From assembly GCA_016741995.1 (NCBI GenBank), contig JACVCO010000008.1, positions 117,604 to 181,603 of the forward strand: DNA of 64,000 bases, given 5' to 3'. A program made the translations under genes and the position numbers. Positions 15,053 through 64,000 of the stretch are shown here, piece by piece. The first letter of the stretch is position 1. Each line of letters opens with the position of its first letter. The notes under the pieces were generated by a model. That model was not told the DNA's origin. It saw only the letters and a list, made by a program, of their open reading frames with translations, and did no database searches. Source of the DNA: Hydrogenophaga sp. (lineage in GTDB: Bacteria > Pseudomonadota > Gammaproteobacteria > Burkholderiales > Burkholderiaceae_C).

Positions 15053-15487
15053 TCAGCGCGGCTGAGCGAGCCGGCGCAGCTGGTTCTTCAGGCGCTCCAC
15101 CGCAGCGGGCGACAGGTCGCCCAGCACCTGGGCTTCGTGGGCGCGCGCCTCGCGCAACAGCGGCGCCACCTTCTTCTGCCCGGCGGGCGTGATCGCCGCC
15201 AGCGTGCGGCGCTGGTCGGCCGGGTCGCCCTGCAGCGCCACCCAGCCCTGCGCCTGCAGGCGCTGCAGCAGCTTGGTCACGGTGGGTTGCTGGCTCAGCA
15301 CCTCGTGCGCGAGCGCGCCCACGCTCATGGGCGATGCGCCGCTCAGCACCGCGAGCACACGCCAGTCGAGCGAACCCAGACCCGCCTTGCGCACCTGGGC
15401 GTCGAAATCCTTGAACAGCGCGTGGTTGGCCTGGCCGAGCAGGTAGCCGAGGTACTCGTCAACGAACCGTTCGCCCCGTTCGCTCAC
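15053..15487 (-). CDS. MarR family regulator (likely controls the 15-19 kb catabolic cluster)
   Basis: 144-residue MarR-type winged-helix repressor: LDWRVLAVLSGASPMSVGALAHEVLSQQPTVTKLLQRLQAQGWV, then DQRRTLAAITPAG. The GTG start at 15487 overlaps the stop codon of the flavin reductase gene (GTGA), so the two form a leftward operon; a longer frame to 15619 would lie inside the reductase gene. Regulators of this kind (NicR, PicR) sit in nicotinate and picolinate clusters. A perfect dyad in the divergent promoter region (16019-16032) is its candidate operator. Confidence 0.88.
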   Translation of the reverse strand: MSERGERFVDEYLGYLLGQANHALFKDFDAQVRKAGLGSLDWRVLAVLSGASPMSVGALAHEVLSQQPTVTKLLQRLQAQGWVALQGDPADQRRTLAAITPAGQKKVAPLLREARAHEAQVLGDLSPAAVERLKNQLRRLAQPR

Positions 15488-16005
15488 AGCGGGTGCTCGG
15501 CGTAGAAGCGCCCGCCGTGAAAGAGCAGGGGAGACGCGTGCGGGTTGTGCGTGCAGCGCTCGACCTCGCCGACGAAGATCACGTGGTCGCCCTCGACGTA
15601 CTGGCTGCGGTTGAAGCACTCGAACACCGCGGCCGCGCCTTGCAGCAGCGGTGCGCCGTGGCCGCCTTCGGTGAAGGCCACGTCGGCCCAGCGGTCCACG
15701 CCGCGCGCGGCGAAGCGCTCGGCCAGGGCCTGCTGGTCGGCCGCGAGCACATTGATGGCGTAGTGCGAGCCGCTGCGGAACAGGGCCATCGAGCCCGCGT
15801 GGTGCGCCAGGCTCCAGAGCACCAGCGGCGGCGACAGCGACACCGAGTTGAACGAGTTGGCGGTCAGGCCCACCAGCGTGCCGTCGGGGGCGCGCGTGGT
15901 CACCACGGTCACGCCGGTGGCGAACATGCCCAGCGACGCGCGGAACTCGAGCGGCGAGAAATCGGGCGGGCGGGCCATGTGGCCGGCTTGACGGGCGGGA
16001 GACAT
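15484..16005 (-). CDS. Flavin reductase, HpaC/NicA-like small component
   Basis: 173-residue flavin:NAD(P)H reductase of the split-barrel family that supplies reduced flavin to a separate monooxygenase. Motifs FRASLGMFATGVTVVTT, LVGLTANSFNSVSLSPPLVLWSL and FHGGRFYAE are typical of HpaC-like proteins. Start chosen at ATG 16005; another ATG at 15978 would shorten it by nine residues, and neither has a clear Shine-Dalgarno site. The ACAD-like flavoprotein encoded at 17968-19233 is the obvious partner in a two-component monooxygenase. It is divergent from the NicX-like gene. Confidence 0.88.
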   Translation of the reverse strand: MSPARQAGHMARPPDFSPLEFRASLGMFATGVTVVTTRAPDGTLVGLTANSFNSVSLSPPLVLWSLAHHAGSMALFRSGSHYAINVLAADQQALAERFAARGVDRWADVAFTEGGHGAPLLQGAAAVFECFNRSQYVEGDHVIFVGEVERCTHNPHASPLLFHGGRFYAEHPL

Positions 16006-16018
16006 GGGCGTCAATTTA

Positions 16019-16032
16019 CATGAATTTTCATG
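16019..16032. promoter_or_regulatory. Inverted repeat, candidate MarR operator
   Basis: CATGAATTTTCATG is a perfect dyad (6-base arms, 2-base spacer) in an AT-rich island of an otherwise GC-rich region, midway in the 77-base gap between the divergent flavin reductase and NicX-like genes. TTTACA at 16015-16020 could be a -35 box for the rightward operon. The size and position suit a MarR dimer shutting off both directions. Confidence 0.5.
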
Positions 16033-16082
16033 AATAATGGGCGAAACACGAACCCGTCCCACCCCCAAAACGAGGAGACCCG

Positions 16083-17132
16083 ATGCTGCAGGAGCGGATC
16101 GAACCCGCCTGGATCGACGCCTTCGACGCGCTGCTGCGCCGTTGCGGCCTGCAGTCCGGCGAGTCAGTGGCCATTCTGGCCGAGACACAGAGCCGCCCGG
16201 TGCTGGTGGCGCTCGCCCACCTGGCCGCCGCGCGCCTGGGTGGGCGTTGCTTCACGGTCACGCTGCCTTCCGTGTTCAGCGGTGATGCGCCGGTGCAACG
16301 CTCCACCGGCGCCAGCCCCGCGATCCAGCACCTGCAGCCGGTGATCGCCGCGCTCGCGGGCAGCCAGCTCGTGATCGATTGCACCGCCGAGGGCCTGATG
16401 CACGCCCCCGAGCTGCCCGCCATCCTGCAGGGCAACGGGCAGACGCAGCCGCGCGTGGTCTACGTGAGCAACGAACACCCCGAGGCGCTGATGCGCCTGC
16501 TGCCCGACGACGCCACCGAGGCGCGCGTGAAGGCGCACGTGAAGCGCCTGCGTGGCGCGAAACGCATGCACGTCGCGTCGGCCGCCGGCACCGATCTGCA
16601 CATCGACCTGACCGGCGCCGTGGTGGGCGGCAACTGGGGCAGCACCACGCGCCCCGGCACGCTCACGCACTGGCCCGGCGGGCTGGTGCTCGGCTTCCCG
16701 GCGGCGGGCACGGTCAATGGCACGCTGGTGCTGGCCGAAGGCGACGTGAACCTCACCTTCAAGCGCTACATCGAGCGGCCGATCGCGCTCACCATCGAAC
16801 GCGACGTGGTCACGCGCATCGATGGCAGCGGTGTCGACGCCGAGCTGCTGCGCAGCCACTACGCCGCCTGGGGCGAGCCCGAGGCCTACGCGGTGAGCCA
16901 CGTGGGCTACGGCCTGAACGACAAGGCGCGCTGGGACAGCATGGCGCTCTACGACAAGCGCGACTTCAACGGCACCGAACTGCGCGCCTTCGCGGGCAAC
17001 TTCCTCTACAGCACCGGCGCCAACGAGGTGGCGGGGCGCCACACGCGCGGGCACTTCGATTTCCCGCTGCGCGGCTGCACGGTGACGCTCGATGACGCGG
17101 CCGTGATCGACGCCGGCAAGGTGGTCGAATGA
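16083..17132 (+). CDS. NicX-type 2,5-dihydroxypyridine 5,6-dioxygenase-like protein
   Basis: 349-residue protein of the NicX family, related to M29 aminopeptidases, which uses Fe(II) and O2 to open 2,5-dihydroxypyridine to N-formylmaleamate. Shared stretches include THWPGGLVLGFP, GTLVLAEGDVNLTFKRY, AVSHVGYGLNDKARWDSMAL and FAGNFLYSTGANEVAGR. The Fe(II) ligands described for Pseudomonas putida NicX (His, His, Asp) correspond to His273 (SHVGYG), His324 and Asp326 (GHFDFPLRGC), all present. The ATG follows GAGGAGACCCG, a strong ribosome-binding site. Its stop overlaps the next start (ATGA). The exact ring substrate is inferred. Confidence 0.85.
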   Translation: MLQERIEPAWIDAFDALLRRCGLQSGESVAILAETQSRPVLVALAHLAAARLGGRCFTVTLPSVFSGDAPVQRSTGASPAIQHLQPVIAALAGSQLVIDCTAEGLMHAPELPAILQGNGQTQPRVVYVSNEHPEALMRLLPDDATEARVKAHVKRLRGAKRMHVASAAGTDLHIDLTGAVVGGNWGSTTRPGTLTHWPGGLVLGFPAAGTVNGTLVLAEGDVNLTFKRYIERPIALTIERDVVTRIDGSGVDAELLRSHYAAWGEPEAYAVSHVGYGLNDKARWDSMALYDKRDFNGTELRAFAGNFLYSTGANEVAGRHTRGHFDFPLRGCTVTLDDAAVIDAGKVVE

Positions 17133-44942: not shown

Positions 44943-45806
44943 ATGAAACGCCTCAACCTGAACCTGCGGGCGGCGCTGGTCTCCCTGCTGCTGCTGTTCG
45001 TCTTCATCGGCGCCTGGCAGCTCAGCACCACCGGGCCCAGCGTGGGCGGTTCCTCGGCCGGCATGACGGCCGAGGAGATCGAGTACGCGAAGATGATGGG
45101 CAAGGACCCGGGTGCCACCAAGAGCAGCGGTTTCCCGCCGCCGCTGGAGGTGGCGAAGACGAGCTGGGGCCACCTGGCCGACCCGTTCTACGACAACGGG
45201 CCCAACGACAAGGGCATCGGCATCCAGCTCGCGCACTCGCTCATGCGCGTGGGCCTGGGCTTCTTCCTGGCCATGCTGGTGGCGATCCCGCTGGGCTTTC
45301 TCATCGGCATGTCGCCGCTCATGCAGAAAGCCTTCAACCCCTTCGTGCAGGTGTTGAAGCCCATCAGCCCGCTGGCCTGGATGCCGCTGGCTCTCTACAC
45401 GCTCAAAGACAGCAACGTCAGCGGCATCTTCGTGATCTTCATCTGCTCCATCTGGCCGATGCTGATCAACACCGCCTTCGGTGTCGCCTCCGTCAAGCGC
45501 GACTGGCTCAACGTGGCCGCCACGCTGGAGGTGAACCCGTTGCGCAAGGCCTTCCTGGTGATCCTGCCCGCGGCCGCGCCCACCATCCTCACCGGCATGC
45601 GCATCAGCATGGGCATCGCCTGGCTGGTCATCGTCGCGGCCGAGATGCTCGTGGGCGGCACCGGCATCGGCTACTTCGTGTGGAACGAGTGGAACAACCT
45701 CTCGCTCACCAACGTGATCTTCGCGGTGCTGATGATCGGTGTCGTCGGCATGCTGCTCGACCTGATGTTCGCGCAGCTGCAGAAGGCGGTGACCTATGTG
45801 GAGTGA
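44943..45806 (+). CDS. ABC transporter permease, nitrate/cyanate type
   Basis: 287-residue inner-membrane permease with an N-terminal helix, a periplasmic loop of about 55 residues, and five further helices carrying the EAA-loop region VKRDWLNVAATLEVNPLRKAFLVILPAAAPTILTGMRI. Family: NrtB/SsuC-like (binding-protein-dependent transport). It begins four bases after the SBP stop, and its own stop overlaps the ATPase start. Confidence 0.9.
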   Translation: MKRLNLNLRAALVSLLLLFVFIGAWQLSTTGPSVGGSSAGMTAEEIEYAKMMGKDPGATKSSGFPPPLEVAKTSWGHLADPFYDNGPNDKGIGIQLAHSLMRVGLGFFLAMLVAIPLGFLIGMSPLMQKAFNPFVQVLKPISPLAWMPLALYTLKDSNVSGIFVIFICSIWPMLINTAFGVASVKRDWLNVAATLEVNPLRKAFLVILPAAAPTILTGMRISMGIAWLVIVAAEMLVGGTGIGYFVWNEWNNLSLTNVIFAVLMIGVVGMLLDLMFAQLQKAVTYVE

Positions 45807-46665
45807 TTCCCGCCAACACGGCGCCCCTGCGGCGGTGCCGGCAAAGAAAGACGCGCCCATGAGTGCCAGCCCCCGCGATTTCCTGCAGGTCGAACAGCTG
45901 GGCAAGGCCTACCAGGCCGACAAGCCCGTGTTTGCCGACGTGAACTTCGGCATCGCCAAAGGCGAGTTCGTCTGCATCATCGGCCACAGCGGTTGCGGCA
46001 AGACCACCATCCTCAACGTGCTCGCGGGGCTCGACACCGCGAGTGCCGGCCACGCCTTCATGGACGGCCGCGAGATCGCCGGCCCCAGCCTGGAGCGCGG
46101 CGTGGTGTTCCAGGGCCACGCGCTCATGCCCTGGCTCACGGTGCGCCAGAACATCGCCTTCGCGGTGAAGTCGCGCTGGCCCGACTGGAAGAAGCCCGAG
46201 GTGGACGCGCAGGTGGAGAAGTACGTGGCCATGGTCGGCCTCGCGCACGCCATCGACAAGAAACCCTCGCAGCTCTCGGGTGGCATGAAGCAGCGCGTGG
46301 GCATCGCGCGCGCCTTCGCGATCCAGCCCAAGATGCTGCTGCTCGACGAGCCCTTCGGCGCTCTCGACGCGCTCACGCGCGGCACGATCCAGGACGAGCT
46401 CATGACCATCGTGCGCCAGACGCAGCAGACGGTTTTCATGATCACCCACGACGTGGACGAAGCCATCCTGCTGGCCGACCGGATCCTGCTCATGAGCAAC
46501 GGCGCCGAAGCCAACGGCGTCTACAAGCCCGGGGGCCTGGCCGAGGTGGTGGTCAACCCGCTGCCGCGGGAGCGCACGCGCACCCAGCTGCACCACCTCG
46601 ACGGCTACTACGCGCTGCGCAACCACATCGTCGATTTCCTCGTCACGCGCGCCAAGGCGCATTGA
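45796..46665 (+). CDS. ABC transporter ATP-binding protein, nitrate/cyanate type
   Basis: 289-residue ATPase. Walker A GHSGCGKTT, signature LSGGMKQRVGIARA, Walker B LLLDEPFGALDALTRG. The NrtD/SsuB/TauB group. The ATG at 45796 overlaps the permease end by 11 bases with AAGGCGG upstream; ATG 45859 (MSASPRDFLQVEQLGKAY) is an alternative start that removes a poorly ordered 21-residue leader. Confidence 0.9.
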   Translation: MWSDSRQHGAPAAVPAKKDAPMSASPRDFLQVEQLGKAYQADKPVFADVNFGIAKGEFVCIIGHSGCGKTTILNVLAGLDTASAGHAFMDGREIAGPSLERGVVFQGHALMPWLTVRQNIAFAVKSRWPDWKKPEVDAQVEKYVAMVGLAHAIDKKPSQLSGGMKQRVGIARAFAIQPKMLLLDEPFGALDALTRGTIQDELMTIVRQTQQTVFMITHDVDEAILLADRILLMSNGAEANGVYKPGGLAEVVVNPLPRERTRTQLHHLDGYYALRNHIVDFLVTRAKAH

Positions 46666-46702
46666 GTTTCTTCAACCTTCACCCACAACATCAGAGGCAA
46701 AC

Positions 46703-47146
46703 ATGAGTCGCATCGAAGTCACCGAAAAAATCGTCACCACCAAGGTCAGCAAAGGCCTCAAGTGGGAAGACGTCGCGAAAAAAGTGGGCCAGTCCAAGGA
46801 ATGGACGACCGCCCTGTGCCTGGGCCAGATGACCGCCACGCCCGCGCAGGCCAAGGTGCTCGGCAAGATCTTCGGCCTGAGCGCCGAAGAGCAGAAGTGG
46901 CTGCAGGTGGTGCCCTACAAGGGCTCGCTGCCCACCAGCGTGCCCACCGATCCGCTCATCTACCGCTTCTACGAACTCGTGAGCGTCTACGGCACCACGT
47001 TCAAGGAGCTGATCCACGAAGAGTTCGGCGACGGCATCATGAGCGCGATCGACTTCAAGATGGACATGAAGCGCGAGGCCGACCCGAACGGCGACCGCGT
47101 GAAGATCGTGATGTCGGGCAAGTTCCTGCCCTACAAGCAGTACTGA
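46703..47146 (+). CDS. cynS: Cyanase (cyanate hydratase)
   Basis: 147-residue cyanase that converts cyanate and bicarbonate to ammonia and CO2. The catalytic triad of E. coli CynS (Arg96, Glu99, Ser122) corresponds to Arg88, Glu91 (YRFYELV) and Ser114 (GIMSAIDF); all are present. The N-terminal HTH-like domain ([22 protein letters not shown]) is intact. It follows the ABC genes with a 37-base gap, which identifies the transporter as cyanate-linked; its stop overlaps the next start. Confidence 0.96.
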
Positions 47147-47617: not shown

Positions 47618-48490
47618 TCAAGGCTGCGGCAGCGGAATCCACTCCGCCTCGTCGCCCGGCGGCAGCGCAATGCGGCCGGCCGTCCAGTCGGCCTTGGCCT
47701 GTTCGATGCGCTCCTTGCGCGAGGACACGAAGTTCCACCAGATGTGGCGGTCGCCCAGCGGCTCGCCGCCGAACAGCATGAGCGTGGCCGCGGTGCGCGC
47801 GGTCACGAAGGCGTCGCTGTCGTTGCCGAACACCAGCAACTGGCCGGTCTGGTAGACCTGCCCGGCGTGTTCCACCTCGCCGCGCGCCACGTACAGCGCC
47901 TGTTCGGCGTGGCCGCCCGGCAGGCGCACGCGCGCGCCGGCCTGCGCTTCGGCGTGCACATGGAACAGGGGTGAGAGCGTGGCCACCGGGCTCTTCGCGC
48001 CGTAGGCCTCGCCCACCACCAGGCGCATCCACACGCCGTTCTCCTGCACGGTGGGCAGGTCGGCCTTGCCGGTGTGCGCGAAAGCGGGCGCGGTCTCTTC
48101 GTGTTCCACCGGCAGCGCCACCCAGCTCTGCATCAGCTCCAGCCCGCCGCCCTCGAACGATTGCGGGTGCCGGAAGCGCTCGCTGTGGCTGATGCCGCGG
48201 CCCGCGGTCATCCAGTTCACGTCGCCGGGCTGGATGTCCATCACCGTGCCCAGGCTGTCGCGGTGCGTCATGGAGCCGCTGAGCAGGTAGCTCACCGTGG
48301 CCAGGCCGATGTGCGGGTGGGGGCGCACGTCGGCGCCCGCGATCGCTTCGGGCGGAAACGTCACCGGGCCGGCGTGGTCCCAGAAGATGAAGGGGCCGAC
48401 CATGCGGCGTTTCGCGTAGGGCAGCACGCGCCGCACCAGCAGGCCGTGGCCCAGGTCCGCGCCGCGCGCGGTGATCACCATTTCCAGCAT
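47618..48490 (-). CDS. Pirin family protein
   Basis: 290-residue bicupin pirin. The N-terminal cupin shows the metal-binding residues in RPHPHIGLATVSYLLSG and MTAGRGISHSER; the C-terminal cupin contains LPGGHAEQALYVARGEVEH. Bacterial pirins bind iron and act as quercetinases or redox regulators. Starts at ATG 48490; a longer frame to 49519 is antisense to the radical SAM gene. Convergent with the cyanase operon. Confidence 0.88.
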   Translation of the reverse strand: MLEMVITARGADLGHGLLVRRVLPYAKRRMVGPFIFWDHAGPVTFPPEAIAGADVRPHPHIGLATVSYLLSGSMTHRDSLGTVMDIQPGDVNWMTAGRGISHSERFRHPQSFEGGGLELMQSWVALPVEHEETAPAFAHTGKADLPTVQENGVWMRLVVGEAYGAKSPVATLSPLFHVHAEAQAGARVRLPGGHAEQALYVARGEVEHAGQVYQTGQLLVFGNDSDAFVTARTAATLMLFGGEPLGDRHIWWNFVSSRKERIEQAKADWTAGRIALPPGDEAEWIPLPQP

Positions 48491-49639: not shown

Positions 49640-50569
49640 TCAAGCCTGCGGCAGCAGCTTGCCCGCGATCGCCGCGGCGGCCGAGCGCGTTTCCACGCCG
49701 AGCTTCTCGAACACGTGCTCCAGGTGCTTGTTCACCGTGCGGTGGCTCATGCCCAGGATGTCGGCGATGTCGCGGTTGGTCTTGCCCTTGGCCAGCCACG
49801 ACAGCACCTCCGTCTCGCGCGGCGTGAGCGCCACCTCGCGCAGCCGCTGCGCCGCGGCCTGGTCCACCGGCGTCAGGCTCAGCAGCAGCATCGATTCGCC
49901 CAGGCTGCCCTGGCCCAGGTGGCGCGCCAGCAAACGGCCCTGCACCGCGCCCTGCGCCACGTTCGCCTGCGCCGTGCCGTCGCGCCGCGCGGCGGCCAGC
50001 CAGTGCGCGGCGGCGGTCTGCGCCGCGGCGTCGGTGCCGAAGGCCTGCTGCAGCCACACCATGGCCTGCGGCGAGCGCCAGGCCACGCGGCCCGGCGAGT
50101 CGAGCACCACCGTGCCCATGCCGGCCACGTCCACCGCTTCCTGCGCCAGGCGGGCCACGCGCGCGTTGCGCACGTGCGTGGCCAGGCGCGCCATCACCTC
50201 GGGAATGCGCAGCGGCTTCACGACGTAGTCCACACCGCCGCTGGCGAAGCCGCGCAGCAGCGGCTCGCTCTCGGAGAGGCCGGTCATGAACAGCACCGGC
50301 ACGTGCGACCAGGCCGGCGTGGCCTTGATGCGCTGGCACAGCTCGAAGCCGTCCATGCCCGGCATCACCGCGTCGAGCAGCACGCCGTCGGGGATCGCGA
50401 CCTCGAAGCGCGCCAGGGCCTCCTGCGCGTCGCGCGCGGCCAGCACCACGTAGCCCTCGTCCACCAGCGCGTCGTCCAGCATGCGCAGCGTATCCAGCGA
50501 ATCGTCAACCACCAGGATCACCGGTTGTGTGGTCGTGGCCGCGGGCGGGTTGTCAGGCCAGGGTGTCAT
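49640..50569 (-). CDS. LuxR-type response regulator partner of the permease-kinase fusion
   Basis: 309-residue regulator: receiver with Asp66 (GVLLDAVMPGMDG), a linker that looks like a degenerate PAS/sensor region (about 140-230, VAGMGTVVLDSPGRVAWRS), and a C-terminal LuxR HTH (LTPRETEVLSWLAKGKTNRDIADILGMSHRTVNKHLEHVF). The ATG at 50569 lies inside the 3' end of the sensor gene (17-base overlap), a tight translational link. Predicted to regulate the divergent urt-fmd operon and possibly amiE. Confidence 0.88.
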   Translation of the reverse strand: MTPWPDNPPAATTTQPVILVVDDSLDTLRMLDDALVDEGYVVLAARDAQEALARFEVAIPDGVLLDAVMPGMDGFELCQRIKATPAWSHVPVLFMTGLSESEPLLRGFASGGVDYVVKPLRIPEVMARLATHVRNARVARLAQEAVDVAGMGTVVLDSPGRVAWRSPQAMVWLQQAFGTDAAAQTAAAHWLAAARRDGTAQANVAQGAVQGRLLARHLGQGSLGESMLLLSLTPVDQAAAQRLREVALTPRETEVLSWLAKGKTNRDIADILGMSHRTVNKHLEHVFEKLGVETRSAAAAIAGKLLPQA

Positions 50570-53500
50570 CGTCCGAAAACTCCTCGGTGTCGCGCAGGTG
50601 GCCGATCAGCGCCTGGAAATCGAAGCGGTCGGCGCAGGCCAGCAGCAGCGCCAGCGTGGCTGCGTGCGCGGGCTCGGTGCCCTGGGCCTGCCACAGGCGC
50701 TGGCGCAGCGCGGCGGCCTGGCCCTGGCGCGCCAGGCGTTGGAGTTCCTCGCGCAGCGCCTCGGGCAGGGGCGTGGCCACGCGCTGGCGCAGCGCGGGCT
50801 CGTCCGCCACGGCGCGCGGGGCTTCCTCGGTCACCCACTCCAGCGTCAGCGCCTGGCGCAGCGCGTCCAGCAGCTCCGACTCCGTCATGGGCTTGGCCAC
50901 GAAGCCCTGGCAGTCGTGCGCGCGCACCGCCTCCAGCGGGTTGTCCATCAGGTTGGCCGAGACGAACACGATCGGCAGGCGCGCGGCCGGCAGCAGGCGG
51001 CGCACCGCGCGCGCGGTCTGCCAGCCGTCCAGGCCGTCCATGGTCAGGTCCAGCAGCAGCAGGTCGGGCACCTGCTGTTCCACGATCTCCAGGCACTCCT
51101 GGCCACTGGCCGCCTCGCGCACCTCGAAGCCCAGCGGCACCAGGATGCTCGCGAGCAACTGCCGGTGCAGCGGCTGGTCGTCCACCACCAGCACGGTGCG
51201 GCGCTCGCCCAGGTAGCCCGTCACCGCGCGCAACGTCGACGGGATGGGCAGCGGGTGCTGCGGGTCCGACGCGATCGGGGGCAGGTACAACCGCAGCGAG
51301 AAGGTGCTGCCCTGGCCGGGCGCGCTCTTGAGCGTGAGGTCGCCGCCCATCATGTCGGTCAGCAGGTGCGTGATGGTCAGGCCCAGGCCGGTGCCCGAAT
51401 CGCGCGCGCGCCGGCCCGCGCTGCCGCGTTCGTAGGGCAGGAAGATGCGCTTCTGGTCCTGCTCGGCGATGCCGATGCCGGTGTCCACCACGTCGATGCG
51501 CGCCACCTGCTGGCGAAAGTCCAGCCGCAGCATCACCTCGCCGGCGTCGGTGAAGCGCACCGCGTTGCTCAACAGGTTGATGAGGATCTGGCGCAGGCGC
51601 TTGGCGTCCGCGCGCACCCAGCCCGGCTGTTCGCCGCGGCGCTGCACCGTGAAGCGCAGGCCCTTGGCCTCGGCCTGCGGGCGCACCATGCGCTCCACGT
51701 CTTCGAGCAACTGGCCCAGGGGCAGCGGCACCGGGTCGAGCTTGAGGCGGCCGGCCTCGATGCGCGCCAGGTCGAGCGAGCCGTCGATGAGCGCGTGCAT
51801 GTGCTGGCCGCTGCGCTGCATGGTGGCGATGGTTTCGCGCACCCAGACCGAGAGCTCGCCCTTCTTGAGCATGAGTTGCGCGTAACCCAGGATGCTGGTG
51901 AGCGGCGTGCGCAGCTCGTGCGTCATGCCCGCCACGTAGCGCGTCTTGGCCTGGCTCGCGGCCTCTGCGCGGTCGCGCGCGGACTGCAGCTCGGCGTCGG
52001 TGCGCTGGTGCGCCTCGATCTCGCGCATCAGCAACTGCGTCTGGCGCTCGGATTCGTCCTGCGCCATGCGGCGGCTGTCGGTGGTGAGCACCACCCACCA
52101 CGAGCACACCGCCGCGAGCAGCACCAGGAAGGCATAGACCTTGAGCAGCGGCAACTGCAGCGCGTGCGCGTTGCCGTGCAGGTTTTCCTGCAGGTACACC
52201 ATGCCGATCAGCAGCGCCACGATGGTGCTGATGGACAGCCACACCGCGAGGAACTGGCCGGCGCGGAAGTTCACGCGCGCCATCACGCCCTGGGGCAGCA
52301 CCCCGGTGAGCCAGGTGCGCACCTGGTCGATGGCGCGCGAGTTGGTCTTGCAGCGGTCGTGGCAGCGCGATTCGAGCGAGCAGCACAGCGAGCAGATCGG
52401 CGCGCGGTAGGCCGGGCAGCCGGCCATGTCCTCCGATTCGAACTGGTTCTCGCACACCGAGCAGCGCACCGCCTGGCCCGGGTACCACTCGCTGGAGGGC
52501 TCGCGCGCCAGGTAGTAGCGCCCGCGCGTGGCCCAGGCCAGCAAGGGCGAGAGCACCAGCGCCAGGCCGAGCGCGATGAAGGGCGAGAAGGCCGAGGCCA
52601 CCTCGCCCATCAGGCCGCTGTAGGCCAGGATGGCCACCAGCGCCGCGATGATCATGGCGCCCATGCCCACGGGGTTGAAGTCGTACAGGTAGGCGCGGCG
52701 GAACTCGATGCCGCGCGGGCTCAGGCCCAGCGGCTTGTTGATGATCAGGTCGGCCACCAGCGCGCCGACCCAGGCGATGGCCACGTTGCTGTAGACGCCC
52801 AGCACCTTCTCGATGCCCGCGAACACGCCCAGCAGCATCAGCAGCGTGGCGATGGCCACGTTGAACACCAGCCACACCACGCGCCCGGGGTGGCTGTGCG
52901 TCACGCGCGCGAAGAAGTTGCTCCAGGCCAGCGAGCCCGCGTAGGCGTTGGTCACGTTGATCTTGATCTGCGCCAGGATCACGAACACCACGGTCATGAT
53001 CAGCGCCAGCCCCGGGTGGCCCACGGCCTCGGTGAAGCCGGCCAGGAACATCTGCGTGGGCTCGGCGGTGCGCTCCGGGTCCACCTCGAACTGCATGGCG
53101 GCAAAGGCCAGGAAGGCGCCGCCCACCATCTTGAGCATGCCCATCACGATCCAGCCCGGCCCGGGGATCAGCACCGCCAGCCACCAGCGCACGCGGTTCT
53201 TCGCCGTGCGCTCGGGCATGAAGCGCAGGAAGTCCACCTGCTCGCCGATCTGCACCACCAGCGAGAAGATCATCGCGGCGGCGGCGCCGAACATCAGCGG
53301 GTGGAACTCGCTGCTGCCCGAGCGGATGCCGGTGAGGCTGGTGAAGTCGCGGTAGAGCTGGGGCTGCGACAGCGCGATCCACACGAAGGGCAGCAGCAGC
53401 AGGAACAGGTAGAGCGGCTGCGTCCAGGCCTGCAGCTTCGAGATCAGCGTGATGCCGCGGATCACCAGCGGGATGATCACCACCGCCGAGATCAGGTAGC

Positions 53501-53978
53501 ACCAGGCCAGCGGCCAGCCGGTCGCCATCTCCAGCGCCAGCGCCATGATCACCGCCTCGATGGCGAAGAAGATGAAGGTGAACACCGCGTAGATCAGCGA
53601 GGTGATCGTCGAGCCCAGGTAGCCGAAGCCCGCACCGCGGGTGAGCAGGTCCATGTCGAGCCCGTAGCGCGCCGCGTAGTAGGCGATCGGCAGGCTGGTG
53701 AAGAAGATGATCAGCCCCACCACCAGGATCGCCCACATGGCATTGGCGAACCCATAGTTCACGGCAATCGCGCCGCCGATCGCCTCCAGCGCCAGGAAGG
53801 AGAGCGAGCCGAAGGCGGTGTGGCCCACGCGCCACTCGCTCCATTTGCGGAACGAACGCGGCGTGTAACGCAGCGCGTAGTCCTCCATGGTCTCGTCGGC
53901 CACCCACGAGTTGTATTCGCGGCGGAAGCGAAAGATCTTCTGCGTGGCGATGGGGGCGGCGGACTCCGGGGGCGGCAT
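50553..53978 (-). CDS. NCS1-type permease / histidine kinase / receiver fusion sensor
   Basis: 1141-residue fusion. Residues about 45-485 are an NCS1 (cytosine-purine permease-like) transporter with roughly 12 helices; 506-543 hold eight cysteines (CSVC, C521, CSLCC, C539, C543), a zinc- or iron-sulfur-like module; two more helices (575-595, 612-632) precede the kinase with His687 (MTHELRTPL), an HATPase domain (NLLSNAVRF, DTGIGI, GTGLGLTI) and a receiver with Asp977 (LLLLDLTMDG). The last 95 residues look like a helical output tail. It sits divergent from urtABCDE-fmd, suggesting that it senses amide or urea by transporting or binding it. Confidence 0.85.
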   Translation of the reverse strand: MPPPESAAPIATQKIFRFRREYNSWVADETMEDYALRYTPRSFRKWSEWRVGHTAFGSLSFLALEAIGGAIAVNYGFANAMWAILVVGLIIFFTSLPIAYYAARYGLDMDLLTRGAGFGYLGSTITSLIYAVFTFIFFAIEAVIMALALEMATGWPLAWCYLISAVVIIPLVIRGITLISKLQAWTQPLYLFLLLLPFVWIALSQPQLYRDFTSLTGIRSGSSEFHPLMFGAAAAMIFSLVVQIGEQVDFLRFMPERTAKNRVRWWLAVLIPGPGWIVMGMLKMVGGAFLAFAAMQFEVDPERTAEPTQMFLAGFTEAVGHPGLALIMTVVFVILAQIKINVTNAYAGSLAWSNFFARVTHSHPGRVVWLVFNVAIATLLMLLGVFAGIEKVLGVYSNVAIAWVGALVADLIINKPLGLSPRGIEFRRAYLYDFNPVGMGAMIIAALVAILAYSGLMGEVASAFSPFIALGLALVLSPLLAWATRGRYYLAREPSSEWYPGQAVRCSVCENQFESEDMAGCPAYRAPICSLCCSLESRCHDRCKTNSRAIDQVRTWLTGVLPQGVMARVNFRAGQFLAVWLSISTIVALLIGMVYLQENLHGNAHALQLPLLKVYAFLVLLAAVCSWWVVLTTDSRRMAQDESERQTQLLMREIEAHQRTDAELQSARDRAEAASQAKTRYVAGMTHELRTPLTSILGYAQLMLKKGELSVWVRETIATMQRSGQHMHALIDGSLDLARIEAGRLKLDPVPLPLGQLLEDVERMVRPQAEAKGLRFTVQRRGEQPGWVRADAKRLRQILINLLSNAVRFTDAGEVMLRLDFRQQVARIDVVDTGIGIAEQDQKRIFLPYERGSAGRRARDSGTGLGLTITHLLTDMMGGDLTLKSAPGQGSTFSLRLYLPPIASDPQHPLPIPSTLRAVTGYLGERRTVLVVDDQPLHRQLLASILVPLGFEVREAASGQECLEIVEQQVPDLLLLDLTMDGLDGWQTARAVRRLLPAARLPIVFVSANLMDNPLEAVRAHDCQGFVAKPMTESELLDALRQALTLEWVTEEAPRAVADEPALRQRVATPLPEALREELQRLARQGQAAALRQRLWQAQGTEPAHAATLALLLACADRFDFQALIGHLRDTEEFSDDDTLA

Positions 53979-54024: not shown

Positions 54025-54049
54025 TACGCACCACCTACGTTATTTGACT
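54025..54049 (+). promoter_or_regulatory. urtA promoter region with TACG-N7-TACGT element
   Basis: TACG (54025-54028) and TACGT (54036-54040) are spaced as a loose dyad directly upstream of TTGACT (54044-54049), a good -35. A factor bound here would touch RNA polymerase at the -35 edge. A similar element precedes amiE. No convincing -10 at 17 bases. Confidence 0.4.
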
Positions 54050-54134
54050 TATGGGCCCGCCCCAGGGTTCTCCCTAGTCTTCGCTCCAGTCGGCACGTCG
54101 CCGGTTTCACCGTCCCAACCCGCAGGAGCCCTTG

Positions 54135-55403
54135 ATGAAGAAACAACCCGATCCGAACGCCGCGTCCCTCGAAACGCCCGAGGCCAGCCGCCGCCGCGTG
54201 CTGCAGATGCTGGGTGCCGCCTCGCTTGCCGGCTTGCCGGCCTGGAGCTTCGGCCAGCCCACCGCACAGGTGAACACCACCAAACTGGCCGTGACCGACA
54301 CCGAGGTCACCGTGGGCCAGCTGCACTCGTCCACCGGCACCATGGCGATCTCGGAAACGGGCTCCATCCAGGCCGAACAGCTCGCCATCGACGAGATCAA
54401 CGCGATGGGCGGCATCCTGGGCCGCAAGATCAAGGTCATCAAGGAAGACGGCGCCTCCGACTGGCCGACCTTCGCCGAGAAGTCCAAGAAGCTGCTCATC
54501 AACGACCGCTGCGCCGCCGTGTTCGGCTGCTGGACCAGCGCCTCGCGCAAGGCGGTGCTGCCGGTGTTCGAGAAAGAGAACGGCCTGCTGTACTACCCGA
54601 CCTTCTACGAAGGCCTGGAGCAGTCCAAGAACGTGATCTACACCGGCCAGGAAGCCACGCAGCAGATCCTCTACAGCCTGGACTGGGCGCAGAAGGAGAA
54701 GAAAGCCAAGACCTTCTTCCTGATCGGCTCCGACTACATCTGGCCGCGCACCTCGATGAAGATCGCGCGCAAGCACGTCGAGGCCTTCCAGAAGGGCAAG
54801 ATCGTCGGCGAGGAGTACTACCCGCTGGGCAGCACGAACTTCGGTTCGCTGATGAACAAGATCAAGCTGCAGAAGCCCGATGTGATCTTCGCCGCCGTGG
54901 TGGGCGGCTCCAACGTGGCCTTCTACAAGGCGCTCAAGGCGGCGGGCATCACCGGTGACAAGCAGACGCTGGTGACCCTGTCGGTGACCGAGGACGAAAT
55001 GACCGGCGTGGGCGGCGAAAACTTCGCCGGCTTCTACTCGTCGATGAAGTACTTCCAGACGCTGGACAACCCGAACAACAAGAAGTTCGTGGCGGCCTTC
55101 AAGGCCAAGTACGGCAAGGACGCGGTGATCGGCGACGTGACTCAGGCCGGCTACCTCGGCCCCTGGCTGTGGAAGGCGGCGGTCGAGAAGGCCAAGAGCT
55201 TCGACGTCGACAAGGTGGTGGCCGCCTCGCGCACCGGCATCGAGCTGCCCACGGCACCCGAGGGCTACGTGAAGCTGGACCCGAACCACCACCTCTGGAG
55301 CAAGTCGCGCATCGCGATGGGCATGCCGGACGGGACCTTCAAGGTGGTTTCGGAGTCGCCCGAGCTGATCAAACCCGATCCGTTCCCCAAGGGTTATCAG
55401 TAA
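54135..55403 (+). CDS. urtA: Urea/short-chain amide ABC transporter substrate-binding protein
   Basis: 422-residue solute-binding protein of the UrtA/FmdD type. A Tat motif (SRRRVLQML, residues 18-26) is followed by a hydrophobic stretch; the mature protein shows VGQLHSSTGTMAISE, INAMGGILGRKIK and GCWTSASRKAVLPVFEKENGLLYYPTFYEGLE, a motif set characteristic of urea-binding UrtA. The ATG at 54135 follows AGGAGCCCTT; a TTG three bases earlier is in frame. In Methylophilus the homologous fmdDEF genes import formamide and urea, consistent with fmdA downstream. Confidence 0.92.
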   Translation: MKKQPDPNAASLETPEASRRRVLQMLGAASLAGLPAWSFGQPTAQVNTTKLAVTDTEVTVGQLHSSTGTMAISETGSIQAEQLAIDEINAMGGILGRKIKVIKEDGASDWPTFAEKSKKLLINDRCAAVFGCWTSASRKAVLPVFEKENGLLYYPTFYEGLEQSKNVIYTGQEATQQILYSLDWAQKEKKAKTFFLIGSDYIWPRTSMKIARKHVEAFQKGKIVGEEYYPLGSTNFGSLMNKIKLQKPDVIFAAVVGGSNVAFYKALKAAGITGDKQTLVTLSVTEDEMTGVGGENFAGFYSSMKYFQTLDNPNNKKFVAAFKAKYGKDAVIGDVTQAGYLGPWLWKAAVEKAKSFDVDKVVAASRTGIELPTAPEGYVKLDPNHHLWSKSRIAMGMPDGTFKVVSESPELIKPDPFPKGYQ

Positions 55404-55465: not shown

Positions 55466-56386
55466 ATGGACATGAGTTTCAACGACCTGCTCAACATCGG
55501 CCTGATGCAGGGCTTCGCGGGCCTGAGCCTGTTCGCCGTGTTGCTGCTCATGGGGCTGGGGCTGGCCATCATCTTCGGGCAGATGGGCGTGATCAACATG
55601 GCGCATGGCGAGTTCATGACCATCGGCGCCTACACCATCTTTCTCGGCTCCACGCTGGCCAACGAGATCAGCCCGGGCGCCGTGGCCGCCTACTTTCCCT
55701 TCGCCATCGTCGCGGCTTTCGTCTTCGCGTTCATCGCGGGCTGGATCATGGAGTGGGCGCTGATCCGCCACCTCTACAAGCGCCCGCTGGACACACTGCT
55801 CGCCACCTGGGGCATCAGCCTGGCGCTGCAGCAGAGCTTTCGCACCTTCATCGGCCCCAAGGAAGTGAGCCCCACGCTGCCCGAGTGGCTGATGGGTTCC
55901 TGGGCGCCCGCCGAAGGCCTGGACATTCCCATCAACGGCATGTTCGTGCTCGCGCTCACCGCGGTGGTGACCGTGGGCGTGCTGATTGCGCTGCACAAGA
56001 GCCGCTGGGGCCTGCGGGTGCGCGCCACGGTGAGCAACCGCGTGATGGCCAACGCCATCGGCATCGACACCAAGCGCACCGACCGCCTCACCTTCGCCAT
56101 CGGTTGCGGCATCGCCGGTGTGGCCGGCGCGGCCTTCACCACCATCGGCTCCACCGGCCCCACCTCGGGCTCGCTCTACATCGTCGACGCCTTCCTGGTC
56201 GTCACCTTCGGTGGCGCGGCCAGCCTGCTGGGCACCGTGGTCTCGGCCTTCGGCATCGCCCAGACGCAATCGATCACCGAGTTCTTCCTCGCCGGCTCCA
56301 TGGCCAAGATGCTCACGCTCACGCTCATCGTGGTGATCCTGATGCTGCGTCCGCAAGGCCTGTTCGCTTCCAAAGTCCGCCGCTGA
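55466..56386 (+). CDS. urtB: Urea/amide ABC transporter permease UrtB
   Basis: 306-residue branched-chain-type permease (LivH family) with about eight helices; GQMGVINMAHGEFMTIGAY and FGGAASLLGTVVSAFGIAQTQS are characteristic. Start ATG 55466 follows GGAGATTCCTG. A gap of 62 bases separates it from urtA and 24 bases from urtC. Confidence 0.93.
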   Translation: MDMSFNDLLNIGLMQGFAGLSLFAVLLLMGLGLAIIFGQMGVINMAHGEFMTIGAYTIFLGSTLANEISPGAVAAYFPFAIVAAFVFAFIAGWIMEWALIRHLYKRPLDTLLATWGISLALQQSFRTFIGPKEVSPTLPEWLMGSWAPAEGLDIPINGMFVLALTAVVTVGVLIALHKSRWGLRVRATVSNRVMANAIGIDTKRTDRLTFAIGCGIAGVAGAAFTTIGSTGPTSGSLYIVDAFLVVTFGGAASLLGTVVSAFGIAQTQSITEFFLAGSMAKMLTLTLIVVILMLRPQGLFASKVRR

Positions 56387-60363: not shown

Positions 60364-60705
60364 ATGCCGACCTACGACTACGCCTGCCCGGCCTGCGGTG
60401 GCTTCGACGCCTACCGCTCGCTGAGCGAGCGCAACGCGCCCGCCTACTGCCCCGATTGCGGCACCGCCTCGCCGCGCGTGTTCGCCACCGCGCCGCGCCT
60501 GGCGCTCATGGATAGCGGCACCCGCACGGCCATGGGCATCAACGAGCGCGCGCGCCACGAGCCCAAGACCTCGCGCGACTACCAGCGGCTCAAGCACCCG
60601 GCGGGCTGCGGCTGCTGCAGCCCGGGGCGCAGCAAGGCCACGGTGACAGCCCCCAACGGGGCCAAGGCGTTTCCGTCGAAACGCCCCTGGATGATCAGTC
60701 ACTGA
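60364..60705 (+). CDS. fmdB: FmdB family zinc-ribbon regulatory protein
   Basis: 113-residue protein whose N-terminal zinc ribbon has Cys8/Cys11 (ACPAC) and Cys29/Cys32 (CPDC). A second Cys group GCGCC is at 81-85. FmdB proteins are presumed regulators of amide utilisation. It follows fmdA by 16 bases. The last 11 bases overlap the convergent hypothetical gene. Confidence 0.85.
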   Translation: MPTYDYACPACGGFDAYRSLSERNAPAYCPDCGTASPRVFATAPRLALMDSGTRTAMGINERARHEPKTSRDYQRLKHPAGCGCCSPGRSKATVTAPNGAKAFPSKRPWMISH

Positions 60706-61200: not shown

Positions 61201-61218
61201 ATACGTCAATCAACGTAT
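61201..61218 (+). promoter_or_regulatory. amiE upstream dyad
   Basis: ATACGTCAATCAACGTAT: arms ATACGT/ACGTAT with a 6-base centre, directly before the expected -35 position if CACAAT (61241-61246) is the -10 of amiE. It resembles the TACG-N7-TACGT element before urtA, so both may be sites for the LuxR-type regulator at 49640-50569. Confidence 0.45.
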
Positions 61219-61287: not shown

Positions 61288-62328
61288 ATGATGCACGGCG
61301 ACATTTCCAGCAGCAAGGACACGGTGGGCGTGGCCGTCGTCAACTACAAGATGCCGCGCCTGCACACCAAGGCCGAGGTGCTGGACAACGCGCGCAAGAT
61401 CGCCGACATGATCGTCGGCATGAAGCAGGGCCTGCCGGGCATGGACCTCGTGATCTTCCCGGAGTACAGCACCCACGGGATCATGTACGACGCGAAGGAG
61501 ATGTACGAGACCGCGGCCACCGTGCCGGGCGCCGAGACCGACATCTTTGCCGCCGCCTGCCGCAAGGCGAAGGTGTGGGGCGTGTTCTCGCTCACCGGCG
61601 AGCGCCATGAAGAGCACCCGTACAAGGCACCGTACAACACGCTCATCCTCATGAACGACCAGGGCGAGATCGTTCAGAAGTACCGAAAGATCATGCCCTG
61701 GGTGCCCATCGAAGGCTGGTACCCGGGCAACTGCACCTACGTGAGCGAAGGGCCCAAGGGCCTCAAGATCAGCCTGATCATTTGCGACGACGGCAACTAC
61801 CCCGAGATCTGGCGCGACTGCGCCATGAAGGGCGCCGAACTCATCGTGCGCTGCCAGGGCTACATGTACCCCGCGAAGGACCAGCAGGTGCTGATGGCGA
61901 AAGCCATGGCCTGGGCCAACAACAGCTACGTGGCGGTGGCCAATGCGGCCGGGTGGGACGGCGTCTACAGCTACTTCGGCCACAGCGCCATCATCGGCTT
62001 CGACGGCCGCACGCTCGGCGAATGCGGCGAGGAGGACTACGGCGTGCAGTACGCCGCGCTCTCCACCAGCCTGATCCGCGACTTCCGCAAGAACGCGCAG
62101 AGCGAGAACCACCTGTTCAAGCTGCTGCACCGCGGCTACACCGGCACCATCAACTCGCGCGACGGCGACAAGGGCGTGGCCGCCTGCCCCTACGAGTTCT
62201 ACGGCAAGTGGGTGAACGACCCCGAGGGCACGCAGAAGGCGGTCGAGGCCATCACGCGGCCCATGGTGGGCACCGAGGAATGCCCGATCGAGGGCATCCC
62301 CAACCCCGCCACCGCAGGCCACCGTTGA
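61288..62328 (+). CDS. amiE: Aliphatic amidase
   Basis: 346-residue nitrilase-superfamily amidase that hydrolyses acetamide, propionamide and related amides to the acid and ammonia. It closely matches Pseudomonas aeruginosa AmiE in long stretches I can recall (start [20 protein letters not shown]). The triad is Glu59 (FPEY), Lys134 (QKYRKI) and Cys166 (IICDDG), with Glu142 also conserved. Two adjacent ATGs (61288, 61291) could start it. It leads a unit with a MoxR-type ATPase gene. Confidence 0.96.
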
Positions 62329-62329
62329 G

Positions 62330-63139
62330 GTGTTGACCGCCGATCCGCTGGCCGACTGGCGCGTCGCCGACGAGCCCTTCTACCAGCCCGTGGGCGACGA
62401 GATCGCCGCCTTCGAGGCCGCGCGCGCGGCGCGCCTGCCGGTGCTCGTGAAGGGGCCGACCGGTTGCGGCAAGACGCGCTTCGTGGAGCACATGGCCTGG
62501 CGGCTGAACCTGCCGCTGGTGACCGTGGCCTGCCACGAAGACCTGAGCGCGGGCGACCTGGCCGGGCGCTGGCTGCTCGACGCGCAGGGCACGCGCTGGA
62601 TGGACGGCCCGCTGGCCCTGGCCGCACGCCACGGCGCGCTGTGCTACCTCGACGAACTGATGGAAGCGCGCGCCGACACCACGGTGCTGCTGCACCCGCT
62701 GGCCGACACGCGCCGCGCGCTGCCGCTGGAGCGCCACGGCGAACTGCTGCGCGCGCACCCCGACTTCCAGCTCGTCGTCAGCTACAACCCCGGCTACCAG
62801 GGCCTGCACCGCGAGCTCAAACCCTCCACGCGGCAGCGCTTCGTGGCGCTGGACTTTCACTACCCCGTGCCCGAGGCCGAGGCCGCGATCGTGGCGCGCG
62901 AAGGCGGTGTCGACGGCGAACTGGCGATGCGCCTGGTGCAGCTCGGCATCTGCACGCGGCGCCTGCAGGACGACGGCCTGGACGAGGGCGCGTCCACCCG
63001 CATGCTGGTGCACGCCGCGCGCCTGCACCGCGCGGGCCTGGCGCTGCCGGCCGCCGCCACCCAGGCCATCGCGGCGCCGCTGAGCGACGACCCCGAGATC
63101 GCCGCGGCCCTGCACGCGCTGGTGCGCACCAGCTGCTGA
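62330..63139 (+). CDS. CbbQ/NorQ-type AAA+ ATPase (MoxR family)
   Basis: 269-residue MoxR-like ATPase. Walker A is GPTGCGKT at 42-49, Walker B-like LCYLDELMEAR, then GYQGLHRELKPSTRQRFVALDFHYP, which is characteristic of CbbQ/NirQ/NorQ proteins. It begins at a GTG immediately after the amiE stop, with GAGG in the last amiE codons. CbbQ-type ATPases activate or remodel enzymes together with a VWA partner, which follows here. In Pseudomonas an ATPase named AmiB is likewise encoded with the amidase. Confidence 0.87.
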   Translation: MLTADPLADWRVADEPFYQPVGDEIAAFEAARAARLPVLVKGPTGCGKTRFVEHMAWRLNLPLVTVACHEDLSAGDLAGRWLLDAQGTRWMDGPLALAARHGALCYLDELMEARADTTVLLHPLADTRRALPLERHGELLRAHPDFQLVVSYNPGYQGLHRELKPSTRQRFVALDFHYPVPEAEAAIVAREGGVDGELAMRLVQLGICTRRLQDDGLDEGASTRMLVHAARLHRAGLALPAAATQAIAAPLSDDPEIAAALHALVRTSC

Positions 63140-63142
63140 GCC

Positions 63143-64000
63143 ATGGACGCGCCGGCCCGGGTGCGACGCGTGGCGCGGGCCCTGTGGGGCGAGGCGTTGC
63201 AGGTGCATTGGCAGGACGCCGCGCCGGGCGCCTTGCCCGCCGAGGCCCCGCGCGCCGTGCTGGTGCGAGACGATCCCGCGCTGCACCTGCCCCGCACCCT
63301 GGACGACCCGGACCAGGCCGTGGCCCTGGCGGCGCACGCCGCCGCGCACCTGCGCTTCGGCGGCGCGGCGCAGGCGCGCACCGGCCTCAAGCCCGTGCAG
63401 CAGGCGCTGCTGGGCACGCTGGAAGACGCGCGCGTGGAATGGCTGGCGCTGCAGGAACTGCCCGGCCTGCGCGCGTTGTGGTGGCCCTTCCACGCCGACG
63501 CCGCGGCGCTGGGCAACGGCTTCGACGCCTTGCTCGCGCGCCTGTCGGCCAGCCTGCTGAACCCCGCGCACCAGGACCCGCACGCCTGGGTCGCCAGGGT
63601 GCGGGGCATCTTCTTCGCGGCCGATGGCGGCCTGGCCTTGCGCACACCGGCCCAGGTGCGCGAAGCCGCCTCGCGGCTCGGCCACGACATCGGCCAGATG
63701 CGCCTGCCGTTCAACGCGCGAACCCACCGCGTGCACGCGCGCTACCGCGACGACAACAGCCACCTCTGGCTGCCCGACGCCACGCTGCCACCCTCGGGCC
63801 TGAGCCTGCGGGCCGATGCCGCGCCGCCCACCGACGACGCGCCCGCGGCCCGGCCCGACACCGCAGCCACACCGCCCGACGCGCGCCACCCCGAGTGGGA
63901 CCACCGCATCGCGCGCTACCGGCCCGACTGGTGCAGCGTTTACAGCGCGCCGTTGCCGCCAGGGCCATCCGATGCCGCCGACGCCCTCTCCGCCACGCGC
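63143..64000 (+). CDS. NorD/CbbO-like VWA protein (3' truncated by window end)
   Basis: Open frame of 286 codons from ATG 63143 to the right edge with no stop, three bases after the ATPase gene. It begins MDAPARVRRVARALWGEAL and contains LGTLEDARVEWLALQELPGLRALWW and HPEWDHRIARYRPDWCSVY, which match NorD/CbbO partner proteins; the C-terminal von Willebrand factor A domain must lie outside. The pair could activate the amidase or another enzyme. Coordinates of the end are unknown. Confidence 0.8.
   Translation, partial: MDAPARVRRVARALWGEALQVHWQDAAPGALPAEAPRAVLVRDDPALHLPRTLDDPDQAVALAAHAAAHLRFGGAAQARTGLKPVQQALLGTLEDARVEWLALQELPGLRALWWPFHADAAALGNGFDALLARLSASLLNPAHQDPHAWVARVRGIFFAADGGLALRTPAQVREAASRLGHDIGQMRLPFNARTHRVHARYRDDNSHLWLPDATLPPSGLSLRADAAPPTDDAPAARPDTAATPPDARHPEWDHRIARYRPDWCSVYSAPLPPGPSDAADALSATR

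What the first reader, a model, noticed from the sequence alone, without database searches (positions are those of the whole stretch)
50553..53978. Transporter-sensor fusion: NCS1 permease + Cys-rich module + hybrid histidine kinase
A complete permease fused to a kinase and receiver is rare (CbrA with an SLC5-like domain is the known analogue, but with a different transporter family). Its placement, divergent from urt-fmd and overlapping its cognate regulator, suggests it reads amide or urea availability through its transport domain. I know of no described NCS1-based amide sensor.
Basis: partly seen in the sequence, partly recalled or inferred. Interest (0 to 1): 0.8.

Follow-up and report, generated by a model that had tools for sequence, protein, structure and literature searches.

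The report
Transporter-shaped urea and amide sensor kinase
This gene encodes a transporter-like membrane domain joined to a signalling kinase; in most of the sampled neighbourhoods it lies beside genes for taking up and breaking down urea and small amides, which it likely senses and would switch on through a shared DNA site.

Summary
Confirmed, and larger than reported. The 1141-aa ORF (50553-53978, minus) is a permease domain with the CodB/Mhp1 (NCS1) fold, an eight-Cys module, two more membrane helices and a hybrid histidine kinase; a LuxR-type regulator overlaps its 3' end. It is not rare: 65 of 397 Pseudomonadota and 12 of 292 cyanobacterial genomes sampled match. Of 71 neighbourhoods, 65 hold urea/amide genes (urt, fmdA, amiE or urease) and 68 have the regulator next door. 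All 42 sampled genomes with window-type (>=68% identical) UrtA carry the sensor. Kinase-free relatives also sit beside fmdA, urtA or urease genes. New here: an inverted repeat TACG-N8-CGTA, 119-fold enriched in the sensor's divergent promoters, absent (0 of 40) upstream of urtA in genomes without the sensor, and present in this genome before amiE and before the urtA beside a urease-linked paralogue. CodB's base-stacking aromatics and sodium-site threonines are replaced in fused and standalone forms alike; one TM1 acid differs in register between them. Best reading: an NCS1-derived receptor for urea/short amides that activates urt-fmd-ami. Ligand, phosphotransfer and DNA binding are untested. 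Ten searches of open-licence papers found no description.

The parts
50553..53978 (-). sensor: NCS1-like permease domain + Cys module + 2 TM + hybrid histidine kinase, 1141 aa
52509..53846 (-). permease core, about residues 45-490 (LeuT fold, closest to CodB/Mhp1)
52344..52481 (-). eight-cysteine module, residues 500-545; predicted metal-binding
   Evidence: only a very weak Prok-RING_1 match, E 8.1
52083..52268 (-). two extra helices, residues 571-632, predicted membrane-spanning, leading into the long linker helix
   Evidence: model
51750..51950 (-). HisKA, residues 677-743, phospho-acceptor H687
51282..51608 (-). HATPase_c, residues 791-899
50859..51194 (-). receiver domain, residues 929-1040, phospho-acceptor D977
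49640..50569 (-). LuxR-type response regulator (REC + GerE), D66; overlaps the sensor by 17 nt
54036..54051 (.). operator with one mismatch (TACGTTATTTGACTTA read towards urtA), 23 nt before a TAGTCT hexamer
61202..61217 (.). exact operator TACGTCAATCAACGTA, 70 nt upstream of amiE
54135..55403 (+). urtA, substrate-binding protein of the urea/short-amide ABC transporter
   Evidence: TIGR03407 510 bits, cut-off 493
55466..56386 (+). urtB permease
   Evidence: TIGR03409
56411..57616 (+). urtC permease
   Evidence: TIGR03408
57627..58370 (+). urtD ATPase
   Evidence: TIGR03411
58383..59072 (+). urtE ATPase
   Evidence: TIGR03410
59121..60347 (+). fmdA formamidase
   Evidence: NF045496 747 bits, cut-off 500
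60364..60705 (+). fmdB-like zinc ribbon
   Evidence: PF09723; the name fmdB is recalled
61288..62328 (+). nitrilase-fold aliphatic amidase, amiE-like
   Evidence: PF00795; the name amiE is recalled

Best explanation
The gene at 50553-53978 encodes an NCS1-like permease domain joined through an eight-cysteine module and two predicted membrane helices to a hybrid histidine kinase, and it likely acts as a receptor for urea or short amides that would switch on the neighbouring urtABCDE-fmdAB and amiE genes through the LuxR-type regulator encoded next to it, which is predicted to bind the inverted repeat TACG-N8-CGTA. Shown: domain order, fold match of the model, gene neighbourhood across genomes, co-occurrence with the window-type UrtA, and the operator's enrichment and position. 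Inferred: the ligand enters the permease's central site; the change passes through the Cys module, the two helices and the long linker helix to the kinase; H687 and D977 feed phosphate to D66 of the regulator; the regulator binds about 43 bp upstream of the urtA transcription start (placed from a TA...T hexamer 23 nt past the operator) and activates. The paralogue in the same genome likely does the same for urea, with its own operator flavour (TACGCC...GGCGTA).
For: Context: 65 of 71 neighbourhoods with urt, fmdA, amiE or urease genes, regulator next door in 68 of 71 (urease, HupE/UreJ, LuxR, UrtA and FmdA labels spot-checked by profile). Co-occurrence: 42 of 42 genomes with >=68%-identical UrtA carry the sensor, against 23 of the other 355. 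Operator: 42 exact copies in 21.1 kb of DNA between the sensor and a divergent neighbour (65 loci) against 21 in 1,257 kb elsewhere in the same loci, with 0 or 1 inside at every other spacing from 3 to 14. Of 24 copies outside those regions, 20 lie upstream of urtA (11), fmdA (8) or amiE (1) and 4 inside unrelated positions (three of the fmdA cases identified). Tests after the pattern was fixed: 0 of 40 urtA genes in sensorless genomes have an exact copy upstream; 7 of 20 other urtA genes in sensor genomes do, exactly the 7 whose genomes own a urease-clade sensor; 5 of 5 annotated loci with the LuxR regulator have an exact copy, 0 of 7 loci without it. This genome (82% complete) has TACGYN6RCGTA only twice, before amiE and before the paralogue-linked urtA. 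Standalone permeases lie with fmdA, an aliphatic amidase and ureABC (L165), with urtA (L167, L168), with fmdA (L185), or face the sensor across an operator (L182). Site: CodB Q105/W108/F204 -> T134/F137/L240 and Na2 T278/T279 -> K339/I340 (CodB roles from passages of PMC9379551); loss of the base-stacking pair would suit a small amide ligand.
Against: No ligand, transport, phosphotransfer or DNA-binding datum exists. Characterised NCS1 proteins mostly move nucleobases and related compounds, so a ureide such as allantoin remains possible. The window's own urtA operator has one mismatch, and within the window alone the one-mismatch pattern is no more frequent than chance (3 against 5.46 expected). 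30 of 65 divergent loci lack an exact operator, among them all nine with ureA as the divergent neighbour (four of these have a one-mismatch copy). L050 shows neither operator nor urea genes in its 20 kb. Some sensors differ at site positions (F137L in 14, T343M in 10 of 95). In CbrA, deletion of the transporter domain left signalling on (PMC7096432 passage), so the permease may only modulate. Cyanobacterial members L082-L084 couple to a REC-MarR protein (profile-checked in L083) and have no exact operator; most other cyanobacterial loci showed no urea genes.
Confidence: 0.72

Rival explanations
1. The permease domain reads a nucleobase or ureide (allantoin, hydantoin, cytosine) whose breakdown yields urea, so urea/amide genes are switched on ahead of their substrate.
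For: The fold is closest to CodB and Mhp1; JGI names many homologues purine-cytosine permease-like; two standalone relatives are named allantoin permease.
Against: I recognised no purine or ureide gene among the recurrent neighbourhood clusters (most clusters were labelled by eye, not by profile). The two aromatics that sandwich the base in CodB are replaced by F137 (L in 14 of 95) and L240 in fused and standalone forms. fmdA and amiE act on amides, not ureides.
Confidence: 0.13
2. The permease is an active urea/amide importer as well as a sensor, and signalling follows flux, a possibility discussed for CbrA.
For: E141, Q243, E246, D249, R252, Q337, K339, N341, N344 and Y346 are invariant in 95 fused and 126 standalone proteins. 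K339 at the Na2 position would suit proton rather than sodium coupling (inference).
Against: In TM1 every fused protein has F61, L/M/C64, E65 and every standalone one Y61, D64, F65 (95 of 95 and 126 of 126), and most loci already have a dedicated ABC importer.
Confidence: 0.3
3. The sensor reports nitrogen or redox/metal status through its cysteine module, and the permease is a structural remnant.
For: Each of eight Cys is conserved in 94 of 95 fused proteins.
Against: Four of the eight Cys (125-126 of 126), and all eight in L165, also occur in kinase-free permeases, so the module belongs to the permease; the permease core is too conserved for a remnant.
Confidence: 0.08

Closest known systems
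CbrA / CrbS / RpuS, SLC5-STAC histidine kinases (transceptors)
   Same: A whole LeuT-fold transporter at the N terminus joined through a small module to a histidine kinase with an associated regulator, tied to use of a small nutrient (PMC13022988 abstract and introduction; PMC7096432 passages; PMC9100948 start of abstract in a listing).
   Different: Transporter closest to NCS1 (CodB, Mhp1) rather than SLC5; eight-Cys module plus two extra helices where CbrA has STAC; no PAS domain found by Pfam; hybrid receiver; LuxR-type regulator; urea/amide genes.
CodB and Mhp1, NCS1 nucleobase symporters
   Different: Base-stacking Trp/Phe and Na2 Thr residues replaced; carries a Cys module and a kinase.
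UhpC, receptor paralogue of the transporter UhpT (recalled)
   Same: In Acinetobacter (L182) the sensor faces a standalone permease of its own family across an operator copy, so a transporter relative would control a transporter.
   Different: UhpC is MFS and separate from its kinase UhpB; here permease and kinase are one chain.
Methylophilus fmd amide/urea system (recalled) and the Pseudomonas veronii Yu15 amiE-fmdA-fmdB-urtABCDE cluster (PMC13209695 passages)
   Same: Same transporter and amidase genes; the Yu15 strain uses acetamide and formamide as nitrogen sources.
   Different: The passages name no regulator for that cluster beyond fmdB, and the text does not contain 'histidine kinase'; amiC/amiR are absent there.

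Membership tests
NCS1 (PF02133) transporters | Pfam profile match | tested here: not met
   no PF02133 match for the window domain at E<=10 (HMMER filters drop most above 0.1); 3 of 26 relatives match, best 1.5e-6
NCS1 (PF02133) transporters | fold of CodB/Mhp1 | tested here: met
NCS1 (PF02133) transporters | aromatic pair sandwiching the base (CodB W108, F204) | tested here: not met
   F137 (or L) and L240; hence called 'NCS1-related', not a canonical member
NCS1 (PF02133) transporters | Na2 site side chains (CodB T278, T279) | tested here: not met
   K339 (95 of 95) and I340 (94 of 95); two other NCS1-like proteins have Arg at the first position
SLC5-STAC histidine kinases | SLC5 transporter domain | tested here: inconclusive
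SLC5-STAC histidine kinases | STAC linker | tested here: inconclusive
   no Pfam domain between permease and HisKA; the stretch is an eight-Cys module plus two helices; STAC itself was not compared
hybrid histidine kinases | HisKA, HATPase_c and receiver with phospho-acceptors | tested here: met
   H687 71 of 71, D977 69 of 71
transporter-histidine kinase transceptors (by function) | ligand-dependent kinase control | not testable with these tools
   needs biochemistry
UrtABCDE / FmdA | NCBIfam curated cut-offs | tested here: met

The most novel reading that the evidence does not exclude
A kinase-free, NCS1-derived urea/amide transporter was fused once to a histidine kinase and turned into a receptor that binds but no longer moves its substrate: the membrane acid of TM1 shifted from position 64 to 65 in every fused protein, the ligand site stayed unchanged, and one operator family (TACG-N8-CGTA) spread with it to command urea and amide uptake across Pseudomonadota.
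Probability: 0.35. Interest if true: 0.85.

Novelty: new variant of a known kind. Interest (0 to 1): 0.74.

Why it matters
How bacteria sense urea and simple amides to induce urtABCDE and formamidase appears open for these clusters; this supplies a candidate sensor, regulator and operator for a whole class of genomes, including Klebsiella plasmids, where the transport genes are discussed without a sensor in the passages I saw (PMC13060141, PMC5506382). It also gives a second transporter family for the transceptor problem, with fused and unfused homologues that share a predicted binding site and differ at one TM1 step, so the question of sensing by binding versus by transport becomes directly testable.

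Tried and rejected
Pfam alone to name the permease (no match); PDB sequence search with profiles (only kinase and receiver hits shown with A1, none with A3); full-length model (pLDDT 64.3, pTM 0.45), not used beyond noting helices after the receiver; no HPt domain appeared in Pfam. Considered that the pair might control the adjacent cyanate genes: the window's only operator-like sites are at urtA, amiE and one weak match at 48403. Considered that the neighbourhood reflects only close relatives: it holds across several proteobacterial families and four cyanobacterial loci (L082-L084, L087). The 11 other cyanobacterial loci (L169-L179) and L085, L086 show no urea genes by my gene calls, which were poor for several of them. 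Zero of 99 genomes of an acidobacterial phylum sample matched, which without a positive control shows little. In VIA-align results a missing family is no evidence. A genome-contig scan with a cyanobacterial query returned 7 true members among 80 loci. The two phylum samples include their centre genomes, known to match.

Rows dropped and limits of the counts: L081 (4.8-kb contig, truncated) left out before the context and sensor counts; 6 of 71 loci without a divergent upstream gene left out. Gene calls came from my own codon-usage script; cluster labels were by eye or by similarity to window genes, spot-checked. The 126 standalone sequences are mostly near-identical Nitrospira/Mycobacterium proteins, about five lineages. 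The operator was first seen by eye in the loci, so and part of 97 are the later tests. The 40 sensorless urtA genes and the 20 others were picked by hand from the matches shown (a capped list); at least eight shown sensorless ones (such as G084, G104, G116, G081, G117, G144, G052, G328) were passed over by no rule. My first count for (19 of 24) was recounted as 20 of 24 after searches showed that three neighbours are the starts of fmdA.

Full report

How common. A protein search filled its candidate list with relatives (7999 of 7999 scored). In evenly drawn genomes it matches in 65 of 397 Pseudomonadota, 12 of 292 cyanobacteria (both counts include the centre genome), 4 of 100 of a Nitrospirota sample (all with open frames of 570-685 aa, so standalone forms) and 0 of 99 of an acidobacterial sample. 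Of 72,556 plasmid records 522 match, 342 of them Klebsiella. The present genome has a full-length paralogue at C23:175934-179338, 51% identical, between urease genes and a second urtABCDE set.

Neighbourhood. I fetched 71 places plus the window, called genes with a codon-usage script and clustered them. With L081 dropped, 71 loci remain. Strict similarity rules give urea/amide genes in 63; L056 and L070 add urtBCD, making 65 of 71. Exceptions: L036 (contig end), L050, L054, L074, L075, L077. Of these, L074, L075 and L077 have a UrtA-like gene near the stretch's edge with an operator before it (L075's passes the UrtA cut-off), and L054's genome has an operator before a urtA 13 kb away (L236). 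The regulator is the next gene on the same strand in 68 of 71. UrtA comes in two grades: 43 places in 42 genomes at 68-100% identity to the window's, and the others shown at 57% or less (capped list). All 42 genomes have the sensor; 23 of the other 355 do (Fisher p 2e-40, not corrected for relatedness).

Standalone relatives. Permeases of the same family without a kinase lie upstream of fmdA, an aliphatic amidase and ureABC (L165), upstream of urtA (L167, L168), upstream of a zinc-ribbon gene and fmdA in Tsukamurella, and opposite the sensor itself in Acinetobacter. In a FastTree phylogeny rooted on the Nitrospira/Mycobacterium/Tsukamurella/Acinetobacter standalone group (the root is my choice), L165 is sister to all fused proteins, which fits one fusion event.

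Ligand site. Two MAFFT modes give the same map to E. coli CodB at the positions used here. Passages of the CodB paper (PMC9379551) name Q105, W108 and F204 as the side chains holding cytosine and T278/T279 as sodium ligands. The sensor has T134, F137, L240, K339 and I340 there. Across 95 fused and 126 standalone sequences, E141, Q243, E246, Q247, D249, R252, Q337, K339, N341, N344 and Y346 are invariant; F137 is L in 14 and T343 is M in 10 fused proteins, mostly those grouping with the Sinorhizobium sensor. The loss of both stacking aromatics suits a small non-aromatic ligand (inference). The clean fused/standalone difference is in TM1: F61, L/M/C64, E65 against Y61, D64, F65, with no exception in either set. 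L165 has the standalone TM1 but all eight cysteines of the fused form, so the cysteine module likely came before the kinase.

Operator. Reading the intergenic regions showed an inverted repeat. TACG-N8-CGTA occurs 42 times exactly in 21,105 bp between sensor and divergent neighbour in 65 loci (35 loci exact, 47 with up to one mismatch) and 21 times in 1,256,624 bp of the rest; other spacings from 3 to 14 give 0 or 1 inside. Of 24 copies outside these regions (loci left out included), 11 precede urtA, 8 fmdA and 1 amiE, and 4 lie inside genes (L032, L041 and L045 neighbours shown to be fmdA starts). In the window's family and one neighbour (window, L011-L017) a TA...T hexamer follows the operator after 23 nt (seen by eye), which puts the operator centre near -43 if that is the -10 (inference), an activator position. 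Later tests: 0 of 40 urtA genes from sensorless genomes have an exact copy within the fetched 213-789 bp, 4 have a one-mismatch copy; 7 of 20 other urtA genes in sensor genomes have an exact copy, and these are exactly the genomes with a urease-clade sensor (7 of 7 against 0 of 13, clades). Within the window's family the two flavours differ: TACGT... at fmd-type loci, TACGCC...(mostly GG)CGTA at urtA of genomes with the urease-type sensor; several alphaproteobacterial-type fmd loci instead read TACGCA...TGCGTA-like, so flavour is not a general rule. Annotated loci: exact copies in 5 of 5 with a LuxR regulator (Klebsiella, Burkholderia, Methylovirgula, Acinetobacter, Sinorhizobium) and 0 of 7 without. 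The assembly of the present genome (82% complete) has TACGYN6RCGTA twice, both at these genes; G190 has two and G281 one, likewise; other genomes carry background copies (0-12 per genome, sensorless ones 0-6).

Mechanism. The likely chain is: urea or a short amide binds in the permease core; the change passes through the cysteine module and the helices to the kinase; phosphate reaches D66 of the regulator; the regulator binds the operator and activates urt-fmd and amiE. Only the anatomy, the context and the DNA sites are shown. Whether the permease also transports is open; the TM1 difference favours a receptor.

Known work. The idea of a transporter-kinase is known from CbrA, CrbS and RpuS (PMC13022988 abstract and introduction; PMC7096432 passages; PMC9100948 start of abstract in a listing). 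Ten searches of open-licence full text found no NCS1-type kinase and no sensor for urt-fmd clusters in their listings. The P. veronii and Klebsiella papers describe the transport genes without it in the passages seen. A bacterial NCS1 metformin transporter was described in 2026 (PMC13390362 passages); it is not tied to a kinase there.

Noticed in passing
window 45796-47146, and genes on to about 42179: An ABC transporter set that looks nitrate/cyanate-type by eye, with a cyanase gene (PF02560/PF21291), lies just beyond the regulator, so urea/amide and cyanate use are side by side.
   Followed up: partly
window 62330-64000: A CbbQ/NorQ-type AAA gene (PF08406) and a following gene with no Pfam hit lie directly after amiE; no link to amide use was sought.
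   Followed up: no
L045:854-1903, L041:684-1736, L032 and L034: A ClpB/ClpX-like AAA gene (PF07724, PF10431 in L045) sits between amiE and fmdA in these loci.
   Followed up: no
L053:7257-11779 and L073:7272-11869: Short sensors (885-894 aa) without receiver, followed by a REC-HATPase protein (387-422 aa) and an opposite regulator (OmpR-type in L053) next to fmdA: a rewired version.
   Followed up: partly
L083:12884-14044, L082:7928-9106: In these cyanobacteria the sensor is followed by a REC-MarR fusion protein (profile-checked in L083) and an amidase gene.
   Followed up: partly
L183 (Klebsiella plasmid pMB8251_1): Sensor, urtABCDE, formamidase and an exact operator are plasmid-borne; the LuxR regulator is present at 15311-16177 though missing from PLSDB's table; transposases flank the region. 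342 Klebsiella plasmid records match the permease.
   Followed up: partly
L011 sensor/urtA intergenic region: A run of about fifteen GCTGCC-like hexamers sits between the operator and the sensor start in this relative.
   Followed up: no
P0329, P0339, P0352, P0354 against L168:8168-9868: Proteins labelled Mycobacterium/Mycolicibacterium are 87-90% identical to the Nitrospira standalone permease, suggesting recent transfer between phyla (or mislabelled records).
   Followed up: no
L167, proteins P0252/P0253: A standalone permease next to urtA; near-identical proteins are listed for Candidatus Nitrospira nitrificans, a nitrifier, so it may be a urea or amide importer there.
   Followed up: no
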